Source: Saprospirales bacterium
Lineage (GTDB): Bacteria > Bacteroidota > Bacteroidia > Chitinophagales > UBA8649
DNA: 37,816 nt
Assembly (NCBI GenBank): GCA_002708985.1
Contig: PAPS01000031.1
Span: 1-37,816, forward strand
Direction: 5' to 3'
A program made the translations under genes and the position numbers. Below the pieces are notes generated by a model that worked only from the letters and a program-made list of their open reading frames with translations, made no database searches and was not told where the DNA came from. Below, piece by piece: positions 8,625 to 36,806 of this stretch. Numbering within the stretch: position 1 is the stretch's first letter; each line of letters opens with the position of its first letter.

Positions 8625-11600
8625 ATGGGCGTCAATCTTGAACGAAATAATGTTATACATCTTGACGGATATCATTGGGATAAAGAAAAAGATGACGATA
8701 AACCACTTCTTAGTCAGCTAACAGACGATCTATTGGCCAACGGTTTTACAGACGTTGGGCCCGAAGTTATCAAACTTACAATCTCTGACAGCGAGTTGAC
8801 CTCGTTTATCGATAAATTTATTGTATACCACTACGACTCTGATCCCTCTACGGTTGGAGGTGGAGCGTTTGGTAATGCATTTGAAGACTCCAAAAAAATA
8901 CCAAACTATACTGTGCCTGCAGTTAACGAACATGATCATAATAAATTTGTTTACGACTTACCTTTAGGAAATGGAGAAGATCCAACAGGTCAAAGATTTA
9001 AATACATTCACCAAGCGTATGCAGACGCAGAACGATGGAATAAAAGATGGTCAGAGTTTCCTACTCTAAATCAAATATCGGGAACAACTTCAGCTGCATC
9101 TTACCTTGGGCCAAACTCCGAATTGTTTGCGTATTTAAATCCACACCCATCAAATATGATGACTAATGAAACTAGTCAAACCCTACCTTCTGGTGTTACA
9201 AATCATCAAAGTCGAGTTAAAAAAATTATTTTTAACATTGGTGCAGACAAGTACGAGAGAGTATTTAATCAACTGGATACTGTTGGTGAAGAGGGTTCCG
9301 GTGTCTTCTTGGGATCAAATCAGGGACAAGACGCAATTAGTATTTCTAGTCAAACTGGATCTCTTACTGGAGATAATGACTCTAGTGGAAGTATAGATGA
9401 TAATTTTCCTCTCGCAAAAGAAATATATCCTGCTGCAGCAAGATTTACTGAAGTTGCTCAATTTAGAGTTGGACAGAGAGTTGTTGGTGAACAATCAGGA
9501 GCAATCGGTGTTGTAACAGAATTTATAGATGCAAATGGAGATCCCTGTGTAGTGGGTAAAAACATATTTGAAAAGAATATGATGTATGACCCAGAGTTAC
9601 TTGCAAGTGTCAGAGGTCAAACTGCAACACACATTTCTGATGGAACTAAAAGCGTTCTAGAGTTTTCTACAGATTTTTCTATCGCAGATTTTGATGAAAC
9701 TGTAGATCAAGTTTATACAGTAACTACAACCGATTCTTCTGATGTCGTAACAAAATTAACCTCGACAGGTCTTACGCCAAATTATTCTACAAATGGAACT
9801 GGAATTACATTTTTAGATTCTGCCGGACAACCAGTATCAGTAGGAAATGAGTTGACTGTAACTGTCTCTTATGGCCCGAAAATGTTAAAAAGCAGACTCC
9901 CAAGTGCTGGGATGGTTTATGGTGGAAACTATGTTCCAGAATACGACTTGCCCGATACCGAAGATTCTACTCACGGAAAAATACTCACAAGAGTTAATGT
10001 TGAAAAGAAACCATATGGAAATCTACAAAGAAAAACTGTCTTTATAGACGAATGGGTAGAACAAACAGAGGGAAGACAACTTGTAGTAGAAGCATTGTCT
10101 AAAGATTTCTTCCCCGGCGAAAAAATCTTTTCAGAAAACCCTTTTGGAGACGACGACAATTCTACTGCAGAATTGACTGGATGGGCAGAACCAATAGATG
10201 TAACTGTAAACTATGAGAACAGATATGTGCCATTTACCTTTACTATAGCTGGCACTTTTAATGCTCAAGATCATGATATAGCTGTAGTAGTTAGACCTTA
10301 TAGATTGGTTGGTTCTGGAACATCATCTAAAAGAGAAGCTTCGGCCGACGATCAATTTATTCTTGAAGGGGCAACTTTGACTTCTAATAGTGGCCAAAGA
10401 CTAAAAAATGGAGGGTTTTCTGCGACTCAAATTCAGTATCCTTCGGGGAGTTATGATTATTGGACTCAATCTAGAGTTGGCCAGTCAAATGCATCTGAAA
10501 GTGGGCCCAACCAGCTGACGCAGCTGCTTAATGCTCAGATTATAGTAACTGTATCGGTCAAAGAACCAGATTATACTACTCTTTCTAGAATTCCTCCACA
10601 ATCTACCGGATTTTCTAATTCCGGTATTCAAACTCTTGGAGAAAAGGGAGATAAGACAGGAGATTTTGGAGCTCTTACTTTTTCAAAGTTAAGTAGATTT
10701 AGTGCTCAAACCGAATTAACAAATGTCGCCGATAAAACCACTGGTAATGATGTAGTACACCAAGGAAATGTTGGTACAGGTTCAGCAGAGTCTTTATCCT
10801 TTAGAATAGAATTTGAAAGAGAGAAAAGTCTTCTTGACAAAATTTCACCCATAACAGATGAATTTGATGTCAATAATCAGGTGATTGTGAATCTTGTAAA
10901 TGATTCTTTGGGAACTTCTCATCAAGTCGGAGATAGTTTTACTGTTAGTTCTTGGGACAACGATGATGTAAGAAACGCTGCAACTACTCAATATTTTCCG
11001 GCATTAGTTGTCGGATGGATCAAATCGAGAAGTCCTTTGCCTAGCGGTATGCAAAGAGTAACTTTTGACGAACAAAACGAGTATGATGGTAGAGGTGCAT
11101 CTCCTACGGAAAGAATGAGTTATGTAACTCTTGATATGGTACAACCAGAAGAGTCTAATGAATTTATCGTAAATTCTGGAGAAGGTAAGACATTTCTAAA
11201 GAAAGATCCGCAAGGTGGGGTAATTTCTGGAACTGGGTATTCTACTGGATATGTAGGAATCGGAACAGTTGCTAAACTTGTTTACGAAAATGAATATAAC
11301 AAAGTTAAGAGATGTTTGATCAATTCTGCAAGAGGTGTTAAGTTTTCTCCGGAAGATGTTACTACTGGTCTGTCTACTTCTACCGAAGCAAGTTTAGTTC
11401 AGTATAAAGAAGAAGAATTAGTCCAAGGAAATAAACACCATTTCTGGATTGCTTTAGATAAATCAGAAACATTCTTCACTTCAGATCAAATAGAACCCAA
11501 ACCCCTTCTTGGTTCTATGACTTTATCTATGAAAACAGAAGACGACAGTTCTCCATCTCCGATGGCCGTAACGGGTATGCAGTTGGGAGATGTTTATACT

Positions 11601-27789: not shown

Positions 27790-29133
27790 ATGCCAAATAC
27801 TAATTTAGAAAACTCAAAGATCAACATGAAGACTCGTATTAGAAATCGAGTCCAAGCTGGTCAGACACCAAGAGATCTAGGAAGACTTGCAAAGTCCGCT
27901 AGATTTGTGGGACTCACAGATGACGCAGAAGTAGAAACTGATATTGATACTCAGATGGCTGCTGCGATTCCTACTGCATCTATAGATGATCTAGTAGAAA
28001 TGTCTGAAGGTCTTGCAGAGTTGAGATCTGGCGCGGCGGATATGGGTAGAGTCAGTAATACAGATAACTTAACAGAAGGTGGAAATAAGTTTCTTAAGGC
28101 AGCAAATGTTCAACCGGCAATAAGTGTCTCTGGAGACTTGTCTTATGATAATGGTGTGGTTTCATACACCGCTCCTACTGCGGCTGCACTTCAAGTTGTC
28201 GCAACAGTCGGAGATCTTCCTACTGGTGCAAGTCCCGGCGATCAAGCAGTAGTTCAATCTAATAATAATTTGTATATTAGAACTGCAGACGGTTGGTATG
28301 CAACTGCGTTGATTAATACTGCTCCTAGTATATCGGGGAATGATGCGTCATATGAACTTGCGACAGATGGAACTCCTACAGTCATCACAATGACCGCAAC
28401 GGATCCAGAAAATGATCCAGTAACATTTTCATATGCAGTTTCTAGCGGATCTTTAGACGGAACTACAGTCGAACAAAACGACAATGTTTTCACTGTTACA
28501 CCACACGCATCCAATCCAGCAACATTTTCTCTTACATTCTCTGCGGATGATTCTGTGAATGTTGCAACAAGTTCCTCTGATTTTTCTCTTAATTTTGCTC
28601 CAGATTTTTCTGGTCATTCTTTGGAGTCTGGGCCCTATGGCTCTTACTATCAATGGGGCGGACTACCACTTGGTTCTTTTGATGAATATGATGCAATGGA
28701 TCACACCCAACAAATGAACTCAGGCCAACTTATCAAAGTGCAAGTAAACTCTCCCCGAATTAATTCTGGAGTAATAATAAACTTAGGGACGACTGCGACA
28801 TTAAAGGGGTTTGTCAGTAATGGCACATCTACAGGATTTGGATCCGGAGGGGGTGCTTACCCATTTGGCGGTAATAATAGGACATCAGTTTTTAATGTAG
28901 ATACCAATCAGTGGGAAGTTATTGATAACAAGAATAAAAATCAAAGAAAATATGGTGCTCCAAGTCTTATTACTGCTAATCAGTCTCCGTATGATACCGT
29001 CAATCAAGATCCGAATTGGCAGTATGGAGAAGCAGGAGTAAGAATTAATAAAATTAAAGTTGAAGCAAACGGGCCCGGGCCAAGTCCTTGGAGCTCAGGA
29101 TCTTCGCCAAGAGGAATATTTCTAATATTCTAA
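27790..29133 (+). CDS. Fibre-array paralogue B3 with Ig-like domain and unique C-terminus (447 aa)
   Basis: ATG at 27790 follows TAGGAAAC just after the previous stop. Residues 1-130 are the shared helical module (LGRLAKSARFVGLTDDAEVE), with the B-type end AISVSGDLSYDNGVVSYTAP. The module DLPTGASPGDQAVVQSNNN, LYIRTADGWYATAL follows. Residues about 176-269 are a cadherin/Ig-like domain (VITMTATDPENDPVTFSYAV) closely similar to that of the preceding paralogue. Residues 270-447 are unlike the others: Gly/Ser/Asn/Pro-rich, with TGFGSGGGAYPFGGNNR and an ending INKIKVEANGPGPSPW. This tail may be a distinct tip domain. It is the last member of the array and the unknown 339-residue gene follows. Confidence 0.8.
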   Translation: MPNTNLENSKINMKTRIRNRVQAGQTPRDLGRLAKSARFVGLTDDAEVETDIDTQMAAAIPTASIDDLVEMSEGLAELRSGAADMGRVSNTDNLTEGGNKFLKAANVQPAISVSGDLSYDNGVVSYTAPTAAALQVVATVGDLPTGASPGDQAVVQSNNNLYIRTADGWYATALINTAPSISGNDASYELATDGTPTVITMTATDPENDPVTFSYAVSSGSLDGTTVEQNDNVFTVTPHASNPATFSLTFSADDSVNVATSSSDFSLNFAPDFSGHSLESGPYGSYYQWGGLPLGSFDEYDAMDHTQQMNSGQLIKVQVNSPRINSGVIINLGTTATLKGFVSNGTSTGFGSGGGAYPFGGNNRTSVFNVDTNQWEVIDNKNKNQRKYGAPSLITANQSPYDTVNQDPNWQYGEAGVRINKIKVEANGPGPSPWSSGSSPRGIFLIF

Positions 29134-29152
29134 TGTTCGGATAATAATACAA

Positions 29153-29160
29153 TATAAATA
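29153..29160 (+). promoter_or_regulatory. T4-type late promoter TATAAATA, unusually close to the start codon
   Basis: An exact octamer ending only six bases before the ATG at 29167. With T4 late spacing the transcript would start at about 29166, next to the start codon. Confidence 0.65.
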
Positions 29161-29166
29161 TTCTTT

Positions 29167-30186
29167 ATGAAAGAATTGACGCTGAGTGAAGACTCAATAA
29201 ACTACTTGGATGATTATTACAATCTTGATGGCGAGAAGTTAACATCGAAATATGAATGTAACTTTCCCATCAAGGTTGATAATAATTTCGCATTCTCCCT
29301 CAACTATGACAACAAAGGGGGGTTCTGTATTGGAAACAAAAAAGAATCTCTTTTTTTCTATTCTCCAAATGACAAGATAGAGTATAAATATAGAACTCGT
29401 AATACTAATACATTTGGAACTTTTTTTCAAGAGAAACAAAAGACAAATACTTTTCCGATAGTATTCAATAATACTATATCACTTCTCAACTATAGTCACG
29501 CAAGAAAGAAAGCTTGGATTAATTCTTCTAGTCTTAAAATAGATTCTCTAGTAGAATCAAAGACTGCGATCTTTGGAAAGAGTTATTATAATTTCTTCAT
29601 CACTCAAAACGAAATAATAATTGTTTCTAATAATTTCCAATCCGCAAGAAAGATTAAATTAAGAAACAAAATCATCAAGAATGTAGAGATAGGAACTAAA
29701 GAAGAGAATAAGATCTCTCTGGTTATCAATACTAATCTCGGCGTGTGTATCTTTGATGTGTCTATCCCCAGATTTGCATTCAAATATAAGAAGTTCTTCT
29801 TTGGAGATTATGAAGTATCTATCAACTCAAATAACGAGATATTCTTATACGACAATCAGAGCTCTAAGTATACTAAATTAGATCACTATACATATTCTTC
29901 TAATTATAAGAACCAACGATTCTATCCGGTATGTCTGGGAAATAATGTATCGTATTTCTCTGAGAGACAGAATATATTGTTTGAAGAAGATCCGGATCTT
30001 GAGTTTAATGTCGAAGGTATGTTCTTCCAAAGAATGAAAGAGTTTCCTATGGAGGAATTTCCTGTCAATGCTCGTATAGAGAAGATAGATCTCAATGAAG
30101 AAACCTTCGAAAAACATCAAATAAACCTAGACTCTGAGGTTATTAAGTTTCCTTTTTACAAACCAAGAAAAAGAAGGAAATCCTAA
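29167..30186 (+). CDS. Hypothetical Lys/Asn/Phe-rich protein (339 aa)
   Basis: The ATG at 29167 has no Shine-Dalgarno sequence and sits six bases after a late promoter, so a leaderless mRNA is likely unless translation starts downstream or from read-through transcripts. The protein is rich in Lys, Asn, Phe, Tyr and Ile. It alternates short strands (FAFSLNYDNKGGFCIGNKK, NNEIFLYDNQSSKYTKL), possibly an irregular beta fold. It ends in a basic tail (KPRKRRKS) that could contact nucleic acid or acidic protein. Composition differs sharply from the Ser/Thr/Gly/Asp-rich fibre genes before it and from the neck genes after it. I do not recognise the family. In T4 the fibritin gene wac lies before gene 13, but there is no coiled coil here, so it is not fibritin-like. 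Confidence 0.75.
   Translation: MKELTLSEDSINYLDDYYNLDGEKLTSKYECNFPIKVDNNFAFSLNYDNKGGFCIGNKKESLFFYSPNDKIEYKYRTRNTNTFGTFFQEKQKTNTFPIVFNNTISLLNYSHARKKAWINSSSLKIDSLVESKTAIFGKSYYNFFITQNEIIIVSNNFQSARKIKLRNKIIKNVEIGTKEENKISLVINTNLGVCIFDVSIPRFAFKYKKFFFGDYEVSINSNNEIFLYDNQSSKYTKLDHYTYSSNYKNQRFYPVCLGNNVSYFSERQNILFEEDPDLEFNVEGMFFQRMKEFPMEEFPVNARIEKIDLNEETFEKHQINLDSEVIKFPFYKPRKRRKS
29383..29390 (+). promoter_or_regulatory. Internal TATAAATA octamer
   Basis: An exact late-promoter octamer inside the 339-residue gene. It could add transcripts for the neck genes, but may be chance in AT-rich coding DNA. Confidence 0.25.
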
Positions 30187-30189
30187 AAA

Positions 30190-30197
30190 TATAAATA
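30190..30197 (+). promoter_or_regulatory. T4-type late promoter TATAAATA for the neck-terminase unit
   Basis: An exact octamer 24 nt before the ATG of gene 13, just after the stop of the 339-residue gene. No further intergenic octamer appears until after gene 17, so it probably drives genes 13 to 17. Confidence 0.8.
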
Positions 30198-34751: not shown

Positions 34752-36806
34752 ATGCCATTTCAAGTAAGTCCCGGCGTTAATGTATCAGAAGTAGACCTAA
34801 CTACTACCACTCCTGCCGCTGCGGTATCCGTAGGTGCATTGGTGGGTCAGTTTGCGAAAGGCCCAGTAGGAGAAATAGTTACGGTTTCTAGTGAAACTGA
34901 ATTGGCGCAAGTCTTTGGTAAGCCAACAGACCAAAATTTTGGATCTTTTTACACTGCCGCGAATTTCTTGGCATATGCTGGGAACTTGCAAGTTTCTAGA
35001 GTTGTCGGAAGCGGAACATTTAACGCAGTTGCCGGTGTACCAAGCACCACAACTCCTACCCTCGCAACAGAGACTGGAACTGCAGTTGCCGCAGTGAGTG
35101 GTGAAACTTTCACAGGAAACGGATCAGACACAACATTTACCCTGTCAAGGGATACCTTTGACGAAACCCTTACAGTTACTGTTGATGGATCTGCTACTAC
35201 AGATTTCACAGTAGACGGAACTACACTGACATTTGACTCTGCTCCTACCGGAACTATTCTTATAGATATTCCAGCAAGAAGTAAGTTTGCAATTTCTCAA
35301 ACCGTTGGATCAAATGATACGGTATCAGTTGCAGGATTTAGTATCGGTACAGATTTTACCGTCAGTGGTCAAGTAATTGATTTTACTTCTGCTCCGACAA
35401 GTGATATTACTATCACTGTCAACGGGCCCACGGTAACATCATTTGCGTATAGTCCAGAGTTAGTTGGATCTTCTGACGATGTTTCATTTGGTTCCGGTCA
35501 AGCAGGCGGGGCCGAGTTTGTTGCAAGAACCCCTGGCCCTCACGGTAATTTTCTAAAGGTTTATATGGTCGATGCAGGAACTTTCTCAAGTTTATCCTCG
35601 ACTTTTCAAAATGAATTTTCTGGAGCTCCAAGTGCAGGCGAAGTTCACGTTCTTGTATGTTCTTCTGAGTCTGGAACTGATAAGGTTGTCGAGAAGTTTT
35701 CATTCCTGTCAAAGGCGTCTGATGGAAAACTTGAAGATGGAACAAATATTTTCTATGTAGATTTTATTAATGAGTTTTCAAACTTCATTTTTGTAGTAAA
35801 TCACACTTCAGAAGGAACAAACTGGGGAACTCCAGAATTAGGTACAACATTTGCAACTCTCAGTTCTATGGTTTATGTAGAATTTTCCGGTGGAACAGAA
35901 GGTTCTGTCCCTACTGCCGGCGAAGCAATTTCTGGATACAGTGTTTTTGAAGATGCAGAAACTACAGACGTTGCACTAATTATGTCTGGAGAATGGGGTG
36001 ACATTACGGACGGAAACACAGTCCAAACACATATCATCGATACAGTTGCAGCTGGTCGCAGAGATGCGGTCGCATTAATATCTGCACGATATATAGATTG
36101 TGTAGGATCTAATCCTGCTGCTGATGTTATTAGTTACTTTACCTCTACAATGACAAGCAATAGCAACTACGCATTCGTAGATTCAAACTACAAGTATCAA
36201 TACGATAAGTACAATGATAAGTATCGATGGGTTCCATTAAACGGAGACATCGCTGGTCTTATGGCAAGAACTGACAGCGAAAGAGATCCTTGGTTCTCTC
36301 CTGCCGGTTTCAACCGTGGAGTTATCAAGAATGTTGTTAAGACTGCTTGGACACAAACAAAAGCGAACAGAGACGATCTTTATAGAAAAGCTCTAAACCC
36401 TGTTGTTACCTTCCCAGGCCAAGGTACAGTTCTGTTTGGCGACAAGACATTTACTACCAAACCAAGTGCCTTTGATAGAATCAATGTAAGAAGATTGTTT
36501 ATTGTTCTAGAAAAGACTATTGCAACAGCATCTAAGTTTACTTTGTTCGAAATGAATGATGAATTCACACGTTCACAATTTGTATCTCTGGTCGAACCTT
36601 TCTTAAGAGAAGTAAAGGGTCGTAGAGGTATATTTGACTTTAAGGTTGTTTGTGACTCAACAAATAATACTGCTCAAGTTGTTGACAGCAACGAGTTTGT
36701 TGGTGACATATTCATCAAACCTGCTAGGTCTATCAACTTCATCCAGTTAAACTTTGTTGCTACAAGAACTGGAACAGATTTTGAAGAAATTGTTGGATCT
36801 GTATAA
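34752..36806 (+). CDS. gp18: Contractile tail sheath protein gp18
   Basis: A 684-residue sheath subunit (T4 gp18 is 659) whose contraction drives the tube through the envelope. The N-terminus VSPGVNVSEVDLTTTTPAAA, followed by GALVGQFAKGPVGE and VFGKPTDQNFGSFYTAANFL, and the C-terminal half (YDKYNDKYRWVPLNGDIAGL, WFSPAGFNRGVIKNV, FGDKTFTTKPSAFDRINVRR) are diagnostic. Residues about 114-226 are a beta-rich stretch with two repeats of a TFTL...TVDG...FTVDGTTLTFDSAP type. It lies where T4 gp18 has its outward protruding domain. This is probably a replaced surface domain on the tail exterior. The gene has its own late promoter and strong ribosome site. Confidence 0.97.
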   Translation: MPFQVSPGVNVSEVDLTTTTPAAAVSVGALVGQFAKGPVGEIVTVSSETELAQVFGKPTDQNFGSFYTAANFLAYAGNLQVSRVVGSGTFNAVAGVPSTTTPTLATETGTAVAAVSGETFTGNGSDTTFTLSRDTFDETLTVTVDGSATTDFTVDGTTLTFDSAPTGTILIDIPARSKFAISQTVGSNDTVSVAGFSIGTDFTVSGQVIDFTSAPTSDITITVNGPTVTSFAYSPELVGSSDDVSFGSGQAGGAEFVARTPGPHGNFLKVYMVDAGTFSSLSSTFQNEFSGAPSAGEVHVLVCSSESGTDKVVEKFSFLSKASDGKLEDGTNIFYVDFINEFSNFIFVVNHTSEGTNWGTPELGTTFATLSSMVYVEFSGGTEGSVPTAGEAISGYSVFEDAETTDVALIMSGEWGDITDGNTVQTHIIDTVAAGRRDAVALISARYIDCVGSNPAADVISYFTSTMTSNSNYAFVDSNYKYQYDKYNDKYRWVPLNGDIAGLMARTDSERDPWFSPAGFNRGVIKNVVKTAWTQTKANRDDLYRKALNPVVTFPGQGTVLFGDKTFTTKPSAFDRINVRRLFIVLEKTIATASKFTLFEMNDEFTRSQFVSLVEPFLREVKGRRGIFDFKVVCDSTNNTAQVVDSNEFVGDIFIKPARSINFIQLNFVATRTGTDFEEIVGSV

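What the first reader, a model, noticed from the sequence alone, without database searches (positions are those of the whole stretch)
29153..29190. Late promoter abuts the start codon: probable leaderless phage mRNA
TATAAATA ends six bases before the ATG, so T4 late spacing puts the transcript start at or one base from the ATG, and no Shine-Dalgarno sequence is present. All other late promoters here leave leaders of roughly 20-70 bases with clear ribosome sites.
Basis: partly seen in the sequence, partly recalled or inferred. Interest (0 to 1): 0.5.

Follow-up and report, generated by a model that had tools for sequence, protein, structure and literature searches.

The report
Leaderless late genes in marine T4-like phages
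In this ocean phage the switch that turns on one late gene sits so close to the gene's first codon that the message probably has no leader for ribosomes to grip, and related marine phages appear to use the same layout for a good share of their late genes.

Summary
TATAAATA (29153-29160) is followed by TTCTTT and ATG 29167, which opens a 339-codon gene without a Shine-Dalgarno (SD) sequence. By published T4 spacing (TATAAATA at -13 to -6), RNA starts at 29166, or at 29167 if it slips one base to the first purine. The ORF is real: 104 of 110 variable codons among 8 records are synonymous. All 8 keep the 21 bases before the ATG, although in five the neighbouring gene's 3' part has been swapped.

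The wider result matters more. In 404 T4-like loci, TATAAATA-to-ATG distances form two classes: 14 bases or more, usually with an SD, and 5-7 bases (34 contexts; 55 permuted motifs give a mean of 0.56, maximum 4). Only 2 lie at 8-13. By deposited gene starts, Pelagibacter phage HTVC008M has 12 of 28 late-promoter genes at 5-6 bases (1-85 kb searched) and Mosig 6 of 32 at 5. A cyanophage set has 0 of 45; T4 has no annotated start at 5-7. Leaderless late mRNA is thus probably a recurrent expression mode of pelagimyophage-type viruses, and this gene one case. No RNA data were available. Ten literature searches listed no paper describing it.

The parts
29153..29160 (+). TATAAATA, T4-type late promoter (-13 to -6 by T4 spacing)
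   Evidence: identical in all 8 records; a homologue of late sigma factor gp55 is in both near relatives searched, G001 and G002.
29161..29166 (+). TTCTTT, all-pyrimidine gap between promoter and start codon; strict +1 is T29166
   Evidence: Six HTVC008M-type contigs plus L156 and L158 type contexts have the similar GATAAATA-gtcttt-ATG before a 113-codon ORF.
29167..30186 (+). 339-codon ORF (P0001), orphan protein in the T4 'wac' slot just before gp13
   Evidence: 104 of 110 variable codons synonymous, 105 of 115 variable sites at codon position 3; no PHROG at 1e-3, no Pfam at E 1, no match in the phages collection.
29146..29193 (+). 48-base block identical in all 8 records: 21 bases upstream, ATG and codons 2-9
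   Evidence: neighbouring sequence upstream is swapped or diverged in six of the seven other records.
27790..29133 (+). upstream 447-codon gene (adhesin-like; weak Cadherin/Ig-like Pfam hits below cut-off); its 3' part is replaced in relatives, ending at the promoter
30190..30197 (+). next late promoter, gp13, ordinary: gap 24 with SD (AGGAG)
29383..29390 (+). TATAAATA inside the ORF, no ORF start of 60 codons or more within 150 bases; probably chance

Best explanation
Late in infection, gp55-programmed host RNA polymerase opens TATAAATA at 29153 and starts RNA at or one base before the A of ATG 29167. The mRNA then begins with (U)AUG and is taken up at its 5'-terminal AUG without SD pairing, as other leaderless mRNAs are. 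Shown here: the promoter motif, the spacing, the lack of an SD, the conserved coding start, a gp55 gene in near relatives, and a recurrent class with the same spacing in related phages. Inferred: the RNA 5' end, and ribosome entry on that end. The compact promoter-plus-ATG unit also marks the right-hand edge of a swapped neighbouring module, so it may help a gene keep its expression in a recombining region (inference).
For: TATAAATA is at -13 to -6 in T4 (PMC1524935 passages). Distances from TATAAATA to the first ATG of ORFs of 100 codons or more in 404 loci: 0-4: 4; 5-7: 34; 8-13: 2; 14-30: 185; 31-80: 188. For 55 permuted motifs not overlapping TATAAATA the 5-7 class has mean 0.56, maximum 4. 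The 5-7 class spans 7 protein families. The variant [ACG]ATAAATA repeats it with 29 at 5-7, while four other altered motifs give 0 or 1. By deposited starts, HTVC008M has 11 at 5, 1 at 6, 1 at 8 and 15 at 18 or more, of 28; Mosig has 6 at 5, of 32. The gp3 gene keeps the 5-7 spacing in 20 of 35 contexts, among them HTVC008M and Mosig. At longer-leader promoters A is enriched at the sixth base after the motif (62%), where gap-5 genes place the A of ATG. P0001 is strongly conserved as protein, and 21 bases before its ATG are invariant.
Against: No RNA or ribosome data. The window gene has gap 6, so strict spacing leaves one extra base. All copies of P0001 belong to one species-like group, so its own conservation is shallow. 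In G001 the only other candidate with a long ORF (278 codons, gap 7) also has an upstream TATAAATA and a GAGG stretch, so P0001 looks alone in its phage. The absence of an SD in the 5-7 class is partly forced, because TATAAATA fills that space. [ACG]ATAAATA also has 13 cases at 8-13, so the gap between classes is less clean for variants. The host is unresolved: the assembly's RpoB is Bacteroidota-like, and Bacteroidia ribosomes are reported not to recognise SDs (PMC9976891, abstract start), in which case a missing SD would mean little.
Confidence: 0.74

Rival explanations
1. The gene is translated mainly from read-through operon RNA started at an upstream late promoter, by SD-less entry at an AU-rich start or by re-initiation after the stop 33 bases upstream; TATAAATA adds little.
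For: No terminator-like site was listed between 29133 and 29167; the neighbouring gene runs in the same direction and ends 33 bases before the ATG.
Against: It does not explain why exact TATAAATA and NATAAATA, but not altered or permuted motifs, pile up at 5-7 bases, nor the two-class spacing in HTVC008M.
Confidence: 0.15
2. The start codon is wrong: the protein starts at a downstream codon such as TTG 29176, so the RNA has a short leader.
For: TTG 29176 is in frame, four codons in.
Against: The next in-frame ATG is codon 285; TTG 29176 has no SD; codons 1-9 are invariant in all 8 records, although that could also be chance or selection at DNA level.
Confidence: 0.05
3. The 29153 copy is a chance match and not a promoter.
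For: One of the nine copies (29383) lies inside the ORF and looks like chance; 2.88 copies are expected in the window.
Against: About 0.005 expected at this spacing for 24 genes; invariant in 8 records while the neighbour's 3' part is swapped or diverged in six.
Confidence: 0.06

Closest known systems
T4 late promoters (gp55/gp33/gp45)
   Same: TATAAATA box, no -35 element, before structural genes in the T4 order gp13-gp19; gp55 homologue in near relatives.
   Different: In the 148,903 bases of T4 read, 29 TATAAATA copies gave no gap below 14. In all of T4 three ATAAATA-N5-7-ATG strings occur and none is at an annotated start.
Leaderless mRNAs such as lambda cI
   Same: AUG at or next to the 5' end, no SD (predicted here). 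lambda cI is named as leaderless in a review (PMC9031893, passages).
   Different: Here the class is tied to a phage late sigma-factor promoter and to virion genes.
Pelagimyophages HTVC008M and Mosig
   Same: [ACGT][AC]TAAATA 5-6 bases before deposited starts: 12 of 28 and 6 of 32 promoter-linked genes.
   Different: Mostly gap 5 (A of ATG exactly at +1) against gap 6 here; only one clean case found in the window's group.
Cyanophage late promoter NATAAATA
   Same: Same box, reported in S-PM2 and Syn9 (PMC2984593, passages).
   Different: 0 of 45 at 5-7 bases in the P-TIM40-type loci.

Membership tests
T4-type late promoter | 8-base box TATAAATA | tested here: met
T4-type late promoter | late sigma factor gp55 encoded by the phage | tested here: met
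   Found in both near-relative records searched, G001 E 2.3e-35 and G002 E 7.1e-35; the window itself is a fragment and was not shown to carry it.
T4-type late promoter | initiation 6 bases after the box, gp55-dependent | not testable with these tools
   Needs RNA 5' ends.
Leaderless mRNA | 5' end at or within a few bases of the start codon | not testable with these tools
   Predicted: 0 or 1 base from T4 spacing.
Leaderless mRNA | AUG start codon | tested here: met
Leaderless mRNA | no SD sequence | tested here: met
   by eye; for the class 0 of 34 with 4 or more SD bases at -16 to -4, partly forced by the box filling that space.
Leaderless mRNA | open 5' end | tested here: inconclusive
   First 16 bases unpaired in the predicted fold, but z -0.39 and not clearly different from four leadered genes.
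T4 wac (fibritin) | gene just upstream of gp13 | tested here: met
T4 wac (fibritin) | sequence similarity to fibritin | tested here: not met
   No PHROG at 1e-3, no Pfam at E 1, no tblastn match in phages at 0.01.

The most novel reading that the evidence does not exclude
Pelagimyophage-type T4-like viruses run two late translation classes from the same late promoter box: SD-led mRNAs and leaderless mRNAs whose A of AUG is placed exactly at +1. The leaderless class includes tape measure, gp2, gp48-type, gp25-type, gp3 and csgF genes in HTVC008M. A phage-encoded ribosomal protein bS21, present in HTVC008M, Mosig and Melnitz, might tilt infected-cell ribosomes between the classes. The bS21 link is speculation: Melnitz has bS21 but its gp3 is SD-led, and bS21 was not found in the window's relatives G001 and G002.
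Probability: 0.6. Interest if true: 0.75.

Novelty: new variant of a known kind. Interest (0 to 1): 0.6.

Why it matters
T4 late transcription is a textbook system, and its late genes have SD leaders. A leaderless class in phages of very abundant marine bacteria would mean late promoters and start codons co-evolved to single-base precision, and that standard gene and promoter finders misread these genomes. A pelagimyophage survey reports that late-promoter prediction by the cyanophage method did not work for these phages (PMC7029224, passages); boxes that sit right against start codons may be one reason (inference). It is testable in cultured phage-host pairs.

Tried and rejected
Reading it as a one-off: rejected after HTVC008M showed the same layout and the 404-locus scan.

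First permutation control gave up to 18 counts at 5-7 for some motifs, because permuted motifs overlap real TATAAATA copies; masking those copies brought the maximum to 4. Both are reported.

My working note called the upstream genes unrelated. A check showed this is wrong: the upstream gene is homologous at its N-terminal side (77-87% identity over about 275-316 residues in L003, L004, L007, L008; by DNA in L005), its 3' part is replaced, and in L006 the 3' end is a diverged homologue (76% over 132 bases). The odds did not need changing.

Structure of P0001: AlphaFold model with mean pLDDT 45 and pTM 0.43; strand-rich but too poor for a fold search, so none was run. Host from 16S: none found in the assembly; RpoB pointed to Bacteroidota. 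A sigma-70 promoter instead of a late one: 12 weak matches against 11.7 expected, none convincing. Other viral contigs carrying TATAAATATTCTTTATG (31 stretches) were listed but not studied one by one. Of the loci held, L009-L016, L097-L127 and later host loci were left out of the 404-locus count.

Full report
WHAT IS THERE. TATAAATA lies at 29153-29160, TTCTTT at 29161-29166, and ATG at 29167 opens a 339-codon ORF that ends at 30186. An in-frame stop sits inside the TATAAATA and no start lies between. There is no SD-like stretch. The gene occupies the place just upstream of gp13 where T4 has wac, but no family or database match was found for it. The window has 9 TATAAATA, all on the + strand, against 2.88 expected. 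Seven other copies precede genes at 24-72 bases, with SD-like stretches by eye; one copy, 29383, is inside the ORF.

IS THE ORF REAL AND IS THE SPACING KEPT. Eight records carry the gene, one of them (L001) being the window's own contig. Of 110 variable codons, 104 are synonymous, and 105 of 115 variable sites are third positions. A 48-base block from 21 bases before the ATG to codon 9 is identical in all 8, although the ORFs differ pairwise by 1 to 72 bases. Identity with the window ends 21-26 bases before the ATG in six records (L003-L008) and runs 1161 bases in L002. The upstream gene is homologous on its N-terminal side but its 3' part is replaced in L003, L004, L005, L007 and L008; in L006 the 3' end is a diverged homologue. 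So the promoter-ATG unit sits at the edge of a swapped module. L007 and L008 are nearly the same phage, so the five swapped records are about four independent cases.

THE CLASS. T4 late TATAAATA spans -13 to -6 (PMC1524935, passages), so +1 is the sixth base after it: gap 5 puts the A of ATG at +1, gap 6 leaves one base. I measured TATAAATA-to-first-ATG gaps for ORFs of 100 codons or more in 404 T4-like loci (4.03 Mb). Unique contexts: 0-4: 4; 5-7: 34; 8-13: 2; 14-30: 185; 31-80: 188, out of 2877 distinct ORF starts. For 55 permuted 8-mers not overlapping TATAAATA the 5-7 class has mean 0.56 and maximum 4. An earlier control without masking reached 18 for one permuted motif. With the slightly different de-duplication, the 5-7 class is 32 contexts in 7 protein families. 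The base six positions after the box is A in 62% of 373 leadered promoters. [ACG]ATAAATA shows 29 at 5-7, 13 at 8-13 and 93 at 14-30; NCTAAATA shows 7 at 5-7, none at 8-13 and 47 at 14-30; four altered motifs show 0 or 1 at 5-7. SD of 4 or more bases at -16 to -4: 0 of 34 against 310 of 373. This contrast is partly forced because the box fills that space, and the HTVC008M gp063 family has AAAGGA just upstream of its box.

ASCERTAINMENT. The loci came from six searches plus named phages. One set was fetched because its query was a 5-base case. Split by set (NATAAATA at 5-7 of all with the motif within 80 bases): window group 6 of 9; window gp13 set 5 of 57; HTVC008M gp063 set 31 of 107 (biased); HTVC008M portal set 22 of 189; window gp18 set 8 of 184; cyanophage gp15 set 0 of 45. 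The portal set was not chosen for the feature. The sets overlap in part: the window's own group recurs in the gp13 and gp18 sets.

CULTURED PHAGES BY DEPOSITED STARTS. HTVC008M, 1-85,000: 104 CDS, 28 with [ACGT][AC]TAAATA within 100 bases upstream. Gaps: 5 in 11, 6 in 1, 8 in 1, 18 or more in 15. An SD of 4 or more bases is seen in 1 of the 12 at gap 5-6 and in 11 of the 15. The 12 include tape measure, DNA end protector, tail tube cap, a baseplate wedge protein, csgF and the tail completion protein. Mosig, 4,380-44,964 and 50,001-98,000: 119 CDS used, 32 with the motif; gaps: 5 in 6, 8 in 1, 10 in 1, 16 or more in 24. In T4, 29 TATAAATA copies in the 148,903 bases read gave no gap below 14; a whole-genome pattern search gave three ATAAATA-N5-7-ATG strings, none at an annotated start. 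The tail completion gene gp3 has gap 5 in 19 and gap 7 in 1 of 35 contexts. Ten of the others have gaps of 16-25, two have no motif, and L218, L314 and L329 have 9, 11 and 0. Melnitz gp3 keeps TATAAATA-GTAGT-ATG, but its deposited start is a second ATG 17 bases on, out of frame with the first and preceded by AAAAGGG, which looks like a switch between the two modes (inference).

MECHANISM. Shown: motif, spacing, coding start, class, gp55 in relatives. Inferred: RNA start on or beside the A of ATG and 5'-AUG ribosome entry. In the predicted RNA the first 16 bases are unpaired, but this does not differ clearly from leadered genes. No terminator-like site was listed between the neighbour's stop and the ATG, so read-through RNA may add to expression.

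LITERATURE. Ten searches listed no paper that describes leaderless late mRNAs in T4-like phages. I judged from listings and from passages of the papers I opened; the library holds only open-licence papers. Against novelty, the AR9 transcriptome paper remarks that phage transcripts are often leaderless, in general terms (PMC5312081, passages). The T4 late-gene review (PMC2988020, part 1 of 6 of its main section, and a term search over its text) does not use the word. The Melnitz paper searched for TATAAAT and kept sites within 10 bases of ORF ends (PMC9004378, passages). The pelagimyophage survey reports that late-promoter prediction was unsuccessful (PMC7029224, passages).

LIMITS. P0001's family is shallow, its protein function is unknown, and its model is poor. 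The host is unresolved: the assembly's RpoB is nearest Saprospiraceae at 76% (best 80 shown), while the phage's gp13 is nearest Caulobacter phage Cr30 at 49% and its other genes carry SDs.

Noticed in passing
G000 (window's assembly), L447; window: The assembly's RpoB is Bacteroidota-like (nearest Saprospiraceae MAGs, 76%), yet the phage genes carry strong SDs and gp13 is nearest Caulobacter phage Cr30. The contig may be misbinned or the host unusual.
   Followed up: partly
window 27790-29133; L003, L004, L005, L007, L008: The gene upstream keeps its N-terminal side but has a swapped 3' part in relatives, with the swap ending at the promoter of P0001: a host-recognition-like variable module.
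   Followed up: partly
L446 14950-15001 (Melnitz gp3), L271 9826: TATAAATA, 5 bases, ATG is kept, but the deposited or first long ORF start is a second ATG further on, out of frame, preceded by a purine-rich SD-like stretch: a possible relic of a leaderless start.
   Followed up: no
W01 91237-91392, W02 9983-10132, W03 35461-35619: Ribosomal protein bS21 genes in HTVC008M, Mosig and Melnitz; not found in G001, G002, T4, Cr30, P-TIM40 or phiM12.
   Followed up: partly
L131, L226, L253, L262, L274, L445 upstream of gp3: In several pelagimyophage-type loci a C-rich stretch and a T run (terminator-like) end just before the leaderless gp3 promoter; HTVC008M itself (L131) does not show it clearly.
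   Followed up: no
L172, L173 near 2400-2583; L145, L146, L151, L154, L156, L158, L174: GATAAATA boxes 6 bases before ATG of 147- and 113-codon ORFs, with gaps gttatc and gtcttt like the window's ttcttt.
   Followed up: no
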